A stretch of DNA of 64,000 nt from Hypoxylon rubiginosum (lineage: Eukaryota; Ascomycota; Sordariomycetes; Xylariales; Hypoxylaceae). How positions within the stretch are numbered: position 1 is the stretch's first letter; each line of letters starts with the position of its first letter. A model generated the notes under the pieces. It searched no databases. It saw nothing but the letters and a program-made list of their open reading frames with translations, and had not been told where the DNA came from. A program made the translations under genes and the position numbers. Positions 18,245 to 39,654 of the stretch are shown one piece after another. The DNA lies in assembly GCA_902806565.1 (NCBI GenBank), contig CADCXA010000029.1, positions 372,001 to 436,000 of the forward strand, given 5' to 3'.

Positions 18245-20337
18245 TCATCCCTCTATATGCGCCTTCGACATACTCTGGCCCAGGAGCTCGAGGCAGCGTT
18301 GTGCAAGGTTGATGACTTCACCCTCGTCATCCTCTTCGAATTCGTTATCCGACTCAACTTGTCGGTTTGCGATTTGCTTGATCATCTCCACAATAGCATC
18401 CGACTTGCCAATGTGCGAAATCAGCGTCTTGTCTTCCGATTCCAGTAGCTGGAGGAGGGTCCATATAGCGATATGCTGGAATGTCGCATCACCACTAGCT
18501 AAGAATCTGCTCAGGTAGCCATGTATGCCACCATTCGGTTCCATCCAGTCCTGAATGAAGATCGAATAATCACCAACTACGCTATGTTAATAGACTGTTA
18601 TGGAATATAAGTACAAGTCGATAGAGCACATACCTTTCGAGGACAGATTGCCGAGGGCTGCAGCACTGTTACCCTGTACCTCAATACTGGGCGAATGCGT
18701 CAGAGGGATTAGGACATCGAAGACACCGAGGTTTAGCAAGTGCGTCTTCAGATCATCCGAGAGAGCAAGGACCGCGATCGCGGCCGTCATCTCCGATTGT
18801 ACCGTGACAGGCACATCCAAGACGAGTTGTTTGCATTTCTGTACTGCGCCAGCTTCTAGAACTAAAGCCTTGTTCCGGTCAGAGCTTGCAGCAAGGTTTC
18901 GGAGAGTCGAGATAGCGTGACATTGAATTTCTTCGTTATCCGTAGAGCCCAGAAGATCGACCAAGGGTTTCAGAAAGCCAGCCTCAATTATGGGCGACTC
19001 GTTCAGCGGGTGGATGGAGATGTTCCGTATGCAAGCGACAGCAGAAAGGATAAGGGGTAGATAAGAGGACTGGAGTAGGCGCAATAGAGGGTTAAGACCC
19101 TGAGCTCGAACAATATCTAGCTGGTACTTCTCGTCCGAGGCTAGGTTTCGGAGGGCCAACGCGGCTTGACACTGGACCTTGGGTGATGAAGAGTCCATCA
19201 AGTTGACGAGCGATTGCACAAGCTTGGTCTCGGACGCAGCCAATTTCCGCCGGTTGTTAGCGTCGACGGCAATGTTGCTTAGAGCCGTGGTGCAATAATA
19301 TTGAACATCAACGTCTGGCGACGACAGGAGTTGGACAAGCACGGGGATAGCACCTGCATTTACAAGCTGTTGCCGATTCTCGTCTGCGTCATAGGTCATT
19401 AGAAACTCCATATTATATGATTGACCAATGGCGTGAAGCCGAATGCTTACCTGAATGTGTCATATTGAGTAGTGCGCCAGTTGCGTTTCGTTGAACCCTC
19501 ATATCTCTCGATTTAGCCAGTCGAGTAAGCGGACCTAGTGCTCCTGATCGTGCAATCTTTGCCTTGTTCTCCTCGTGTGTCGCCAAGTTCGTGATGCATC
19601 CTACAGCATTGCATTGTACCTCGACATTCGGAGAAAGCATCTGGCGTATGAGGGGAGTCAAACCGCCAAGTTGGACGATCAGGACCTTATTCTCGGCTAG
19701 TTTGTTTGGTGAGATAGACGGTAAAACAAAGTCGTAGAGCCATACTCACTATTAACGGCAAGGTTTCCCAGCGCTGCACTAGCTGCTCGTTGCACTTCAA
19801 TATCGGGACTTTGAAGTAAGAATAGGATGGGCTCCAGGGTGTCCCGATCGACCTCGCGAACATCTAAGGGTACGTCAGCTCGAAGTCCCAATCTCCCAAG
19901 TATAGATCGGCCGGGTCTAAGCAAATGCCTGCCCCGTGGCTTAGCAATACCAAGTCCCTCCTGCCGATATTGATGTCGTTACGCACCTCGCTCCGTGATC
20001 TCTGCGAATGTTAAACTCGCACTTCGTTGCAGGTCGATATTGTCGGAGAAGACGAGGGTGCTTAGAGCTCGAAGAGGTTCGCCTGAGAAGAAGTCGGTCT
20101 CGCCGCGCTAGAAAACGGTTAGCTTAAAACGGTAGGAAGGTCGATCAGTCGAAGACACACGTTTTCGAGGTATTGGAGTAGGTCGGCGACAGCTTCTCGC
20201 TCGCTATCGGCTAATACAGGCTCGTAGAGACCGTCGCGAGATTTGCCTGCGTCGTGTTTTTTTTAGCACTAGAAAAGCTTGGATTGTCAGGAGACGGGTG
20301 TAGCCGTACCTCCGCAGCACGACTGGCAGGCCCCCAT
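18245..20337 (-). CDS. vac8: Vacuolar armadillo-repeat protein Vac8
   Basis: Predicted 558 residues from seven exons: 20337-20310, 20246-20161, 20107-19987, 19863-19750, 19696-19451, 19383-18634 and 18576-18245. Vac8 sits on the cytosolic face of the vacuole and links it to vacuole inheritance, nucleus-vacuole junctions, homotypic fusion and autophagy. The N-terminus [10 protein letters not shown] has Gly2 for myristoylation and Cys4, Cys7 and Cys8 for palmitoylation, all the expected lipid anchors. The body is a run of about eleven armadillo repeats (blocks such as [30 protein letters not shown]). Near the end an acidic insert ([11 protein letters not shown]) is followed by the conserved ARM-like CLELLGQSM. 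Length agrees closely with fungal orthologues. The many small introns are typical of this gene. Confidence 0.96.
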
Positions 20338-34409: not shown

Positions 34410-35846
34410 CTACCGCATTTCCGTATCGGGCCGAAACGACAAGGAGCGAAACGCGCTGGGAGCCTCCCACAAGCCGAGGCTCGTCGTACTCCGTTGCGAG
34501 ACTGAACTTCGTCGACCCGAAGCAACTGCCACTGCCGCCGCCGCCGCCGCCGCTCGCTCGACGTACGGCTGGAGAGCGTTTAACCGGCGCCGCGTTAGCA
34601 CGAGAACGTCATCGTCGCTATCTTCGTTATCATCGGGCCGGCTGTTGTTGCTGCGGTCACCGAGCGCCCGCGCGCGGACTACGCGGGAACTTTGTCCTTC
34701 GCTCGGCTGTTGTACCTGTTCCTGCTCTTCCTGCTCTTCCTGCCGCTGCCGCTCCTGCTGCCACTCCTGCTGTTGCCGTGCCAGCTCCTCCAGCTCCTCC
34801 AGCTCCCGTCGCGGGTACGGAGTGTCCTCCCACGCGCTGCCGTCGATCAGGCGCAGGAGCCGCCGGTTGTTGTCGTTGGAGGGGTGGTAGTTTAGGCTCA
34901 AGGAATGCATCGCTAGCGGGTTGGGCCGCCGGCCGTACGGGTCCCAGTCCGAGGGGGGCTGGAAGAACGGGTTGGGGATGTTTTCTGAGCGTTCGTCGTG
35001 TTCCCCGTTGACTCCGTTGGATCCGTTGGTTCCGTTTGCCCTCCTGGTCCCGTTGGCGGCCCCGTTGGTGACCCCGTTGGCGACACCGTTGGCCCCGTTG
35101 ATCCCGTCTCTTCTTCTGGCTGCAGTGGCTTCCAATGTATTGAAGACGTCGTCAATGGCCTCCCCGATAGCGTTGAAGGTCTCGTTGGTCCCGTCGGCGA
35201 TGGAGCCAGTGGGCGGCGTAGGGGGCTCCGCGCCGGTGCTGTCGCTATCGCTCTGGCTACTGCCGCCGTCGGAGCTGCTCTAGTACTCCGTGTCCGACAC
35301 CGCATTCCAGGGGGGGTCCTCGGCACCTCCGCCGCCCCTGTTGTAACTCCAGCTTCTGCCGACGCCGCTGCCGCTGCCACCGCCGCCCGCGCGGACGCGC
35401 ACAAACGCCACGCTGAAGCACCGGTCGGCCGTGGGCAGCGCGTGCATGACGGGGCGGGAGTCGACGCCGAACCGGGCCTCGGCCTCGAGCAGGGACCAGA
35501 AGGCGTCGTCGTCCGGGTCGAGGCGGACGGCGCCGGGGGCGGCGGTCCGCGTCTGCTGCGCGTACAGCGCGACCCGGTACCCCTCGCGCCGGCACTGCTC
35601 CCAGCACACGCGGGCGGGGCGCCGGTACGGGACCGCCGGGTGCGGGACCGGGTGGAAGGGCGGCGACGGCGAACGCGACGCGCGCAGGAGCCGGTCCCGC
35701 AGCCGCCGGACCATGACGCGGCAGAGGGCCGCGTGCGCGCGCCGGCGGCTGCGCGGGTCCGGGGGCAGGCGGGTGCGCGGGCGCGGGGGCGACGTGGGTA
35801 GACGGCGCGGGCGGTGCGATGTGCCGTTTACGGTTGCGTACGGCAT
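34410..35846 (-). CDS. Unrecognised family, paralogue 1; one frame interrupted by a single TAG
   Basis: Read from ATG at 35846 the frame stops after 188 residues at TAG (35282-35280), then continues in the same frame to TAG at 34412-34410, 478 codons in all if the stop is passed. Residues 1-188 are Arg/Pro-rich and hold the family core: YRVALYAQQ, DDDAFWSLLEAEARFGVDS, VAFVRVRA and NAVSDTEY. In the two relatives (36.5 kb and 39.7 kb) this EY is followed by Trp, and here the TAG occupies that codon. The next 123 codons have no ATG, so an independent downstream gene would have to skip half of the open frame. The extension has Asn-Gly repeats, a WDPYGRRPNPL block and a Glu/Gln-rich helix (RRELEELEELARQQQEWQ). 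A conservative annotator would call 35280-35846 only. Function unknown. Confidence 0.6.
35280..35282 (-). other. In-frame TAG at a conserved Trp position
   Basis: The codon follows GAG TAC and precedes AGC AGC. A UAG to UGG change in the mRNA (or the reverse mutation in DNA) would give EYW, as in both paralogues. Confidence 0.8.
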
Positions 35847-36491: not shown

Positions 36492-37241
36492 TCAATACCA
36501 GTACTCCCCGTCAGAGACCGCATTACTCTCCCTCAGCTCATTGTCGAGCGGGTGCAGACCTCGGACGCGCATAAAACGTACCGCGACCTTGGGCAGCTCG
36601 CGCATGAAGTCGGTAGGAACGAGACGTATTCCACCGTTGACGCCACAGCGCGCTACGTCTATGAGTCCCTCCCAGAGTAGGCCGTCTCGTGGATCGATGA
36701 CGGCGGCCTCGGCCATCTTGGAGGCGTACAGAACGATCTGGTAGGGCGAGCGTTGGCAGTTGAGTCGAAAGATCTCCCGGGGCCACTCGCAGACGCCGGC
36801 GAAGTCGCGGAGAAAGCATTCTTCTTTCTTGACAACGGCCCGTGATAGGACCTCTCGGTAGACCCGGACTAGATGCTCGCAATCGCCAGTCTGCTGCCAG
36901 TCCGGTATATAGCCTTGGGGCTGGGTGTGCTGAGGGAATTGCTGCAGCTCTCCGCCGATGCCAGACTGAGGGTTATAGGAAACAGGCTGTTGCTGTTGTT
37001 GGATGGTCCACTCGGCGTCCTAACCAAGATGGATCCTGCGAGAGACATGGAAGTCGGGGACGCTTGCAGCAGGCTGGGGCCATTGCTGCGGATTCTGGAC
37101 CAGCTGTGGACTCTGGACCAGCCATGGATCAATATTCTGATGCGCTTCTGGAGCAGCATGTTGATGGGGTCGATGAGTATATTGCTCAAGTGTCGGATCA
37201 ATGTTTTGAGTGTCGAGGGGAATACTGCGACTGTCGGACAT
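36492..37241 (-). CDS. Unrecognised family, paralogue 2; in-frame TAG near the N-terminus
   Basis: One frame runs from ATG at 37241 to TGA at 36492, broken only by TAG at codon 74 (37022-37020); 249 residues if passed. The part before the TAG is Gln/Pro/His-rich (IDPTLEQY, QLVQNPQQWPQPAAS). The part after it holds the full family core: DWQQTGDCEHLV, FLRDFAGVCEWPREIF, SPYQIVLYASKM, WEGLIDVARCGVNGG, VAVRFMRVRGL and the end SNAVSDGEYWY. The first ATG after the TAG lies inside the core (36716), so that start would cut the conserved domain. A phase-0 intron ending at this TAG is possible in principle (GT dinucleotides at codon starts exist 42-99 bp upstream), but their donors (GTCCAG, GTCCCC, GTCTCT) are poor and no branch point stands out. 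May be a pseudogene, spliced, or edited. Function unknown. Confidence 0.55.
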
Positions 37242-39654
37242 CTTGGTCGTGCAAAGTGAGGCTGGCGTGTTGTAATGATGTATGATAGGGCAGTTGAAAG
37301 AACAATACCACGTTTTAAATCGAATGTTAGATGTGAAGGTGTGTGTTTTTATCTTCAGGAACGTGTGGTTGTGTCGTTAAAAAAAGGTAGATTTAGAATT
37401 CAAGAACTATATAACTTTCTACTTATGTTACGACGGCAACGAAGTTCTCAAATCACGTTGCCCACCTAACGAAAAATTCACTTATCACTGTAGGAAGGCA
37501 CTACCTTATATCGTTTAGACAAACATCGGTTTGTTTATAACGAACAGTTTTTGTGCTTAACATGGCCTTCCCCTACCCCGTCTCTGTGAGGTTATTGTGC
37601 AGTCGCGATGGCGGAATGGAAACTGAAATAAGACAAGGAAACTGCAAAATGCAAAATAACCATTTTGTAAATGTGCTTTCTGACTACGTTCAGAAGTACC
37701 AAACCCAGCCCCTATTCTACGTACTAAAGCATATGCCATTCGCCTGAGGCAAACGATAAGCTCCATTAGCCACTTGCTAACACAAGAAAATTCGTAGTGG
37801 TAACAATTGCGACTTCCTCGCAAATTTAGTATCAAGATACTCTGGTAAAGGGAAACTGGTTCCAAACAGTCAGCAAATTCTCTAGAAGTGAAAGGCCCTG
37901 ACTGAACTTGGATTGAGCAATTGATTGTGTTTTACGCCATGAGGGTGCATTGCAAAATAATATCCTACACCTACCAGGGGGCACGAGACGTGGCAAGCTA
38001 TCTACTGCTATAATTCTAGTTATACAGCGGGTTTAGAAGCTATTTTCTAGCCTTTTAGATATGCTATATCATAATTATATATCTACTCCAACCAGGACTT
38101 CTGTATCTTGCGGGTGTAGCGTAAGTATGTTAACCCCTATCGCTTGGATAAGTGCCGGCTTATTATTATATAAGTGTAATATAAGATAAAAAGAAAATAT
38201 TAATAGGTGAAGGGTTAGTATTAGCTTACCACCCTTCTAGCTGGCCAGATTTGTGTACTAGTAGGCTTGTTGCCTGTTATCTAGTGGCTGCTATGGGTGT
38301 TATTATTTCCAGTTTCTCCTCTTTATTAGAGGGCTTAGGGGAGGGTGGTCTCCTGTGTAACAGAGGGTATGTTTTGGTGAAATATTTCGTAACCTCATAC
38401 AACTTTTTGTACTCCGGAGGGGTTTAAATTAGCCAGCAAAGGTATTTTCTCCTCTCTAGGGAGTTGGGGAATTCCTTTTTATAGAATAGTATAAAGCAGC
38501 TATGTTTATCTTACGGTCTACTATTGACCCTGGGTTTCGGCTTCGGTAGTGTTGGTTAGTCTGCTATGATGACTGAATTCAGAGATGTAGCGGTTAGATG
38601 CTTAAATTTCTATGTATGCTAGTTGAGGACGGTCTCATGTCGGGGACGGCATTGTTATTTTGCTAACTAATACCGTTGTGTTAAAAATTGTTTCTTTCTT
38701 CGAACAGGTATTAAGAAATGAACGTTGGTCAGGGTGTTTTGCGACCTCATTGAGTTGCTAGTGGGACTATTAACAGTGAATCTGGTTGTTTATGCTAAAG
38801 CTCGCGGAGTACTGATCTCTAATATTGATGAAATCCTTTCTTCAGAAGCCATTGCAGGTATCTACAACCGCATTCTCTAAGAGTCTTGCTCCGTATTATA
38901 GGACGATCTAGAATGCACGTATCTAGTGTACCTAGGCACCTATGTAGTCAAGACAGTATCATCAGAGCTCAAGTCAAATATCAGACAAGGATATGTTTGT
39001 ATTTACCTTTTTGAAGTTGTACGTGGTGACATTCATAGTAGTGTTGTTTGAGGAAATAAAAGTCAAGTTTTTATCAGTAGGTACAGTGTACGGCATATTG
39101 TGAGAAAACAACGATCATTATTGATCTCAGCTTTTGGGCTTCAGCCTAACTGAGGACTATCCAAGAGTCTCGTCTTTTTGGTCTTCTCTCTCTCCTCCTC
39201 TCCTTCTCTCGTCTCCTCTCGTCTCCTCTCGTCTCCTCTCGTCTCCTCTCGTCTCCTCCCTTCTCTTCTCTCTTCTCTCTTCTCTCTATCCCCTCTTTTC
39301 CGTGACCTGATGCTGCCATCTGCTACCACCCGTAGAGTGGCGTATTAGGTAGCCACCCCAGCCCCTGATATTTCCACTGGGGTGACTACCGGCAGTGAGC
39401 CAATTTTGTTCGTTCATGGCCCTCCAAACGTCTTCGGCGTTCCAAGATGGTGACTCGCTCCATCTCGAAGAAAGTGCCCGTCATGTCGACGGTCCCAGCA
39501 CCCACAGTGTGGGAGGGAGGGTGTAGCCTCTTCCCCCCCAACCACACCGCGTGAGGCGTCACTGGTTGCCGTTGCTGTAGGTACAGCTGTTACAAGACTC
39601 TAACACCACACGGTATCGCCAGGATTCTCCATAGCTACGCCTCTTGCCCCGGAG
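37242..39654. other. Long intergenic region between paralogues 2 and 3
   Basis: A 2.4-kb gene-free stretch. Roughly 37900-38720 is strikingly AT-rich by eye with many TATA/ATAT steps, which could be a mutated (RIP-affected) repeat relic, but no transposase or reverse transcriptase frame could be read. Pyrimidine repeats at 39170-39300 are listed separately. Downstream of 39330 is a mixed-sequence 3' region of paralogue 3. Confidence 0.5.
39211..39260 (+). repeat. 10-bp tandem repeat (GTCTCCTCTC)
   Basis: Four exact copies of GTCTCCTCTC and a fifth with one change, within a longer C/T-only tract from about 39175 to 39298. Confidence 0.9.

What the first reader, a model, noticed from the sequence alone, without database searches (positions are those of the whole stretch)
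34410..35846. In-frame TAG standing in for a conserved Trp: candidate UAG to UGG mRNA editing
Seen directly: paralogue 1 reads NAVSDTEY-TAG, while both relatives read EYW at this place; after the TAG the same frame stays open for 289 more codons, the first 123 without any ATG. Established knowledge: in Neurospora and Fusarium, A-to-I mRNA editing during sexual development turns UAG into UGG codons, restoring full-length proteins from apparent pseudogenes. Inference: this gene could be such a target, encoding 478 residues. Competing ideas are RIP (which also turns TGG into TAG), stop readthrough, or two adjacent genes.
Basis: partly seen in the sequence, partly recalled or inferred. Interest (0 to 1): 0.88.

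Follow-up and report, generated by a model that had tools for sequence, protein, structure and literature searches.

The report
Neighbouring fungal genes with internal stops
A fungus carries three related neighbouring genes, two of them interrupted by a single UAG stop codon in the kind of RNA loop that related fungi edit during sexual reproduction, so both may be completed only by RNA editing, which has not been shown here.

Summary
Window 35846-34410 (minus) is one frame: 188 codons, TAG at 35282-35280, then 289 open codons, the first 123 without ATG. The genome matches Hypoxylon rubiginosum MUCL 52887. The extension is coding-like in this frame and stays open in 9 of 5000 shuffles. RIP, a consensus intron and a known readthrough context are not supported.

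Two corrections. (1) In the five other family sequences seen, the protein ends one or two residues after the W, so this TAG sits at the family's usual C-terminus; editing would be of the stop-loss kind, adding an extension no relative shows. (2) The neighbouring paralogue (37241-36492) has its own in-frame TAG at codon 74. Its H. texense relative is coding through that point; the deposited H. rubiginosum model omits exactly that stretch as a 60-nt non-consensus intron, the annotation error described for edited Fusarium genes.

Both TAGs lie in predicted hairpin loops with U at -1 and purines at +1 and +3, as fungal A-to-I editing prefers. Tad2-like, Tad3-like and DUF726 genes exist, but none has the Ame1 MV residues. 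No RNA data were available; recent pseudogenes, or a short functional protein for gene 1, remain possible. Known mechanism, perhaps new in Xylariales.

The parts
35283..35846 (-). Gene 1, part before the TAG: 188 codons, family domain ending ...NAVSDTEY
   Evidence: 35-36% identical to the domains of genes 2 and 3
35280..35282 (-). In-frame TAG of gene 1, at the place of the family's conserved Trp; its A at 35281
   Evidence: predicted hairpin loop at all eight flank lengths tried
35269..35289 (-). Predicted hairpin around the gene-1 TAG: CGGAG stem arm, TACTAGAGCAG, CTCCG arm (a U-G pair can shorten the loop to 9)
   Evidence: loop probability 0.984-1.0; coordinates read by eye
34410..35279 (-). 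Gene 1, 289-codon open extension after the TAG, with the second TAG at 34412-34410
   Evidence: no Pfam match above cut-off
36492..37241 (-). Gene 2: ATG, 73 codons, TAG, 175 codons, TGA; ends ...SDGEYWY
   Evidence: P0003 98% and P0004 56% identical
37020..37022 (-). In-frame TAG of gene 2 (codon 74); its A at 37021; aligns with Gln in H. texense P0004
   Evidence: predicted hairpin loop at all eight flank lengths tried, loop probability 0.953-1.0
36987..37046 (-). 60-nt stretch that the deposited model P0003 leaves out (donor GTCTCT, acceptor CAG); probably a model artefact that steps round the stop
   Evidence: coding in P0004
39655..41010 (-). Gene 3: intact paralogue, 451 codons, ends ...NEEYWSP
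   Evidence: P0002 98% identical over the 127-residue domain

Best explanation
A small tandem family (three genes, minus strand) of a fungal protein of unknown function, in which genes 1 and 2 each carry one UAG codon presented in a hairpin loop. In fruiting bodies the tRNA-type deaminase Tad2-Tad3 with Ame1 most likely changes A to I, so that UAG is read as UGG. In gene 2 this gives the full-length 249-residue protein (premature stop correction); in gene 1 it gives the family's C-terminal Trp and lets translation run into a 289-residue extension (stop-loss). Shown: the frames, the TAGs, the family, the coding signal, the predicted loops, candidate machinery genes. Inferred: transcription, editing, stage and function.
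For: Extension coding-like in the gene's own frame and open in 9 of 5000 shuffles. Gene 2 homologous to H. texense P0004 on both sides of its TAG and through it. P0003 omits exactly the TAG stretch with a non-consensus donor, the annotation error described in PMC4817773 and PMC11169179 (passages). Both As in predicted hairpin loops at all eight flank lengths; 441 of 6101 (+-15) and 303 of 6101 (+-30) background TAGs lie in a loop on a stem of 6 or more. U at -1 and purines at +1 and +3, the preferences given in PMC11156358. The TGG codons at the gene-1 place in genes 2 and 3 are not in hairpin loops. In 264 kb only these two stops have at least 70 open codons before, 170 after and coding-like sequence on both sides (cut-offs chosen after seeing gene 2). 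Tad2-like, Tad3-like and DUF726 genes present.
Against: No RNA data. Gene 2's loop is only mildly unusual: 145 of 1000 synonymous recodings and 114-191 of 2000 shuffles do as well. None of the four DUF726 genes reads MV at the place counted as Ame1 500-501 (SL, AN, GV, AR). With looser cut-offs TAG and TAA are equal, 3 each. No known edited gene was recovered as a positive control. No protein model of gene 1 was found. Editing of gene 2 would give Trp where H. texense has Gln, not the ancestral residue.
Confidence: 0.5

Rival explanations
1. Gene 1's TAG is its ordinary stop codon: a functional 188-residue protein ending at EY, where the family ends anyway; the downstream frame is a relic of a once longer protein, or a separate downstream exon or gene.
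For: Five of five other family sequences end 1-2 residues after the W; the extension has no homologue found.
Against: Extension coding-like and in the same frame without a stop over 289 codons; no ATG in its first 123 codons.
Confidence: 0.25
2. Genes 1 and 2 are recent pseudogenes, each with a single nonsense mutation that has not yet been followed by decay.
For: One G-to-A or C-to-T change suffices for each TAG; lineage-specific duplicate genes are often lost (general knowledge).
Against: Two neighbours with one stop each, both TAG, no frameshift in either frame; the other H. rubiginosum entry keeps gene 2's domain at 97-98% identity.
Confidence: 0.2
3. The gene-2 TAG is removed by splicing of the 60-nt stretch as modelled in P0003, constitutively or as an alternative to editing (as PMC11156358 reports for FgBUD14).
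For: Deposited model P0003; 60 nt is a usual fungal intron length (recalled).
Against: Donor GTCTCT; 0 of 96 candidate GT..YAG pairs across the TAG have a donor matching 5 of 6 and a branch-like site; the stretch is coding in P0004.
Confidence: 0.1
4. RIP made the TAGs during sexual crosses.
For: Both TAGs could come from CpA-to-TpA changes; indices of gene 1 are nominally RIP-like (1.26 and 0.82).
Against: TpA 29 seen against 32.1 expected in gene 1 and 25 against 34.0 in gene 2; gene 1 is 70% GC.
Confidence: 0.03
5. Translational stop-codon readthrough without RNA editing.
For: Would also explain open frames after the stops.
Against: Following bases AGC and GAC are not the CUA or CARYYA contexts (contexts recalled; sequence).
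Confidence: 0.04

Closest known systems
Premature-stop-correction (PUK1-like) A-to-I editing in Fusarium graminearum and Neurospora crassa (PMC4817773, PMC11156358)
   Same: Single in-frame UAG in a coding sequence, U at -1, hairpin loop, annotation that skips the stop with a false small intron (gene 2); Sordariomycete host
   Different: Editing not observed here; family without a known function; order Xylariales; two neighbouring paralogues affected at different places
Stop-loss A-to-I editing of canonical UAG stops (PMC4817773, PMC5381528)
   Same: Gene 1's UAG stands at the family's usual C-terminus, and editing would extend the protein
   Different: The extension is 289 residues; two F. 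graminearum hyphal cases in PMC11169179 are 28 and 11 residues
OLD-ZAO antiviral module with PSC editing (PMC12754623), and CHE1 (PMC11169179)
   Same: UAG in a hairpin loop; small false introns in annotation; short form in the uneditied state
   Different: Targets are C2H2 zinc-finger factors beside an OLD deaminase gene; here no Pfam domain above cut-off and no OLD match on this contig

Membership tests
A-to-I edited UAG (PSC or stop-loss) of Sordariomycetes | A-to-G change in RNA of sexual tissue, absent from DNA | not testable with these tools
   No RNA reads are held
A-to-I edited UAG (PSC or stop-loss) of Sordariomycetes | In-frame UAG with coding sequence after it | tested here: met
   Gene 2 by homology on both sides; gene 1 by codon statistics and open length only
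A-to-I edited UAG (PSC or stop-loss) of Sordariomycetes | A in a hairpin loop, U at -1, A/G at +1 and +3 | tested here: met
   against controls gene 1 is unusual (43 of 1000 recodings), gene 2 only mildly (145 of 1000). A preference of the class, not a strict rule
A-to-I edited UAG (PSC or stop-loss) of Sordariomycetes | Host with Tad2, Tad3 and a functional Ame1 | tested here: inconclusive
   Tad2-like, Tad3-like, four DUF726 places; residues at the counted Ame1 500-501 place are SL, AN, GV, AR, none MV
OLD-ZAO module | OLD deaminase gene next to the target | tested here: not met
   Five PF14441 matches, none on contig C29
OLD-ZAO module | Target with C2H2 zinc fingers | tested here: not met
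   No Pfam match above cut-off in gene 1 before the TAG, its extension, gene 2's domain, gene 3, P0003 or P0004
RIP-mutated gene | Excess of TpA and loss of CpA over expectation | tested here: not met
   TpA 29 against 32.1 (gene 1) and 25 against 34.0 (gene 2); the crude indices of gene 1 point the other way
Intron around the TAG | Consensus-like donor, branch site and acceptor across the TAG | tested here: not met
   Gene 2: 0 of 96 candidate pairs. Gene 1: 2 of 234, of 287 and 291 nt with donor GTTTGT, which would remove the conserved end of the domain (40-400 nt scanned)

The most novel reading that the evidence does not exclude
In one tandem family, UAG stops have arisen independently at two different places in neighbouring paralogues (one at the C-terminal Trp, one in the Gln-rich N-terminal part) and are kept as stage locks: the proteins are withheld, or kept short, in mycelium and completed by editing only in fruiting bodies. 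Gene 1 has gone further and evolved a long second module that only the edited message encodes. This would be the first case of editing known in Xylariales and a repeated, family-wide use of correctable stops.
Probability: 0.22. Interest if true: 0.72.

Novelty: new member of a known kind. Interest (0 to 1): 0.5.

Why it matters
If the stops are edited, correctable stop codons extend to Xylariales, for which three searches of the held open-access library listed no paper that I could recognise as a report (listings only). Two neighbouring paralogues with TAGs at different places would be a natural replicate for asking whether such stops are selected as switches or merely tolerated because editing rescues them. 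The case also shows how annotation can hide such genes: one deposited model omits the stop, and no model of gene 1 was found.

Tried and rejected
RIP rejected. My notebook entry called the gene bodies not RIP-like; for gene 1 the crude indices (1.26 and 0.82) in fact look RIP-like, and only the counts against expectation argue against it.

Introns rejected on consensus (40-400 nt). Readthrough motif absent (contexts recalled).

Protein searches: the gene-1 read-through found nothing at E<=1 among the 8000 candidates scored. The gene-3 domain found one H. rubiginosum protein among 85 candidates. The domain alignment found the gene-2 orthologue and one H. texense protein among 5683 candidates. 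No PDB match up to E 1. No Pfam match above cut-off in six proteins; two weak sub-threshold hits in the extension are taken as chance. No Rfam match in the window and no tRNA.

Positive controls that gave nothing: a PUK1-like stop among kinases, where I read 5 of the 10 stretches listed with one TAG only; the DxW(S/A) motif is intact in all five and the TAGs look like intron sequence or lie at the edge of the stretch. DNA-methylase genes of the RID kind: four matches, none with a stop inside. OLD-ZAO neighbours: five OLD-type matches, 7.5 kb read around one of them without a convincing zinc finger, and no listed C2H2 match within 50 kb of any of the five.

No structural evidence is used.

One search was a throw-away pattern to learn whether a whole genome is held.

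I corrected the number of polls and added the results against the reading; the odds of the leading explanation are unchanged.

Full report
WHERE THIS IS. The window lies in a 48,274,338-base genome of 70 contigs, at C29:372001-436000. PMC8403587 (passages) lists H. rubiginosum MUCL 52887 with 48,274,337 bases and 70 scaffolds, and a protein named Hypoxylon rubiginosum is 98% identical to gene 3 over its 127-residue domain. I take the host as H. rubiginosum: Xylariales, Sordariomycetes (classification recalled).

THE OBSERVATION. Gene 1 (35846-34410, minus) reads 188 codons, TAG, 289 codons, TAG. The finder's counts are right. Six family sequences were seen: genes 1-3 of the window, and P0002, P0003, P0004. 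The five other than gene 1 end in EYW plus one or two residues. The TAG thus stands both at a conserved Trp and at the family's usual end, which the finder did not say.

THE EXTENSION. A codon model trained on 41 long ORFs (18,913 codons, the family left out) scores the extension best in gene 1's own frame: 0.021 against -0.104 for the best of the other five frames, with 0 stops against 1-8. The margin lies between the 75th and 95th percentile of 44 chunks of those ORFs, which were not held out of training; in 5 of the 44 chunks another frame scored better. Dinucleotide shuffles stay open over 289 codons in 9 of 5000, over the first 123 in 750 of 5000. No homologue of the extension was found in the own genome (best other match E 0.041) or in the protein collection (8000 candidates scored). 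A coding-like stretch is not expected to arise behind a permanent stop, so it was translated in the past or still is (inference).

GENE 2. The own-genome search with gene 3 returned the neighbour with one TAG inside. Gene 2 runs 37241-36492: 73 codons, TAG (37022-37020), 175 codons, TGA. The conserved domain lies after the TAG, and the first in-frame Met after the TAG lies inside that domain, so without correction, splicing or another start the domain is not made whole. P0003, the model from the other H. rubiginosum entry, is 98% identical to gene 2 but omits 20 codons that include the TAG: a 60-nt 'intron' with donor GTCTCT. P0004 of H. texense is continuous there (HVSGQNAGSTSQQQQ), the TAG aligning with Gln under all three gap settings tried; so editing to Trp would not give the residue of that relative. 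PMC4817773 (passages) describes 69 further F. graminearum genes where annotation introduced introns to avoid in-frame UAGs that are edited to UGG; PMC11169179 (passages) reports the same for CHE1 homologues. Whether the DNA behind P0003 has the TAG cannot be told from the protein.

HAIRPINS. PMC11156358 (parts 1 and 2 of 3 read) gives U at -1, A or G at +1 and +3, and hairpin loops as the preferences. Both As fold into loops at all eight flank lengths from 15 to 100, with sampled loop probability 0.953-1.0 at three of them. Background: of 6101 TAGs sampled from the window and 20 stretches, 441 (+-15) and 303 (+-30) lie in a loop on a stem of 6 bp or more; merely being in a hairpin loop is common, 3082 and 1734 of 6101. 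Shuffled flanks reach a stem of 6 in 8 (+-15) and 47 (+-30) of 2000 for gene 1, and in 191 and 114 of 2000 for gene 2. Synonymous recodings do so in 43 of 1000 and 145 of 1000. The TGG codons at the gene-1 place in genes 2 and 3 are not in hairpin loops. This is moderate support for gene 1 and weak support for gene 2.

RARITY. In 264 kb (the window and 20 stretches of one contig), stops with at least 60 open codons before, at least 100 after, and coding-like sequence on both sides number six, 3 TAG and 3 TAA. With 60 and 150 there are 2 TAG and 1 TAA; with 70 and 170 only the two in question remain, both TAG. The strictest cut-offs were chosen knowing gene 2's lengths.

MACHINERY. A Tad2-like ORF at C21:581547 (HAEFMAL, PCVMC) and a Tad3-like ORF at C27:1836611 (HAALRA, EPCIMCAM, without the catalytic Glu), named from motifs as recalled; PMC12754623 (part 1 of 3 read) states that Tad3 has lost the Glu, there to Val, here Ala. 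DUF726 matches lie at four places, the family of Ame1 according to PMC11087585 (passages and section 17). The paper's key residues MV500-501, counted back from S531 of the GYSLG motif without gaps, read SL, AN, GV and AR here (the fourth counted by eye): none is MV, one has the V. So a functional Ame1 is open. Five OLD-type deaminase matches exist, none on C29.

ALTERNATIVES. RIP: TpA at or below expectation, gene 1 70% GC, though its crude indices look RIP-like. Intron: none credible. Readthrough: contexts not matching (recalled). A natural stop for gene 1 and recent pseudogenes for both remain the serious rivals. Searches for known edited genes in this genome gave no positive control; PMC5381528 (passages) says individual sites are rarely conserved between species, so this counts little either way.

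JUDGEMENT. Editing of both stops is the best single reading at about one half. Gene 2 is the better case for coding on both sides of its stop, which homology shows; gene 1 has the better hairpin but rests on codon statistics. The mechanism is known; the order, the family and the paired neighbours would be new. That no report was recognised rests in the open-access library only: they listed two, one and no papers, which I did not open.

Noticed in passing
window 36492-37241 (-): Gene 2 has its own in-frame TAG at codon 74, not named in the finding; it became part of this report.
   Followed up: yes
own genome C27:250562, C66:1668761, C42:314790, C11:213691, C65:515763: Five OTT_1508-type deaminase matches (the family of OLD editing enzymes), with no listed C2H2 zinc-finger match within 50 kb; 7.5 kb was read around the first only.
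   Followed up: partly
own genome C27:1499712-1500790 (L011, L015): Of four DUF726 places this one has V at the counted Ame1 501 place (GV); a candidate fast-evolving Ame1.
   Followed up: partly
window 18587-19411 (-) and 58514 (-); L039:2943; L038:5370: Other single stops (TAA at three, TAG at L038:5370) with coding-like open frames on both sides at the loosest cut-off; likely gene ends or exon edges, not examined.
   Followed up: no
window 37300-39100: AT-rich stretch (40% GC) between genes 2 and 3, lower in GC than its surroundings; TpA 175 against 163.4 expected.
   Followed up: no
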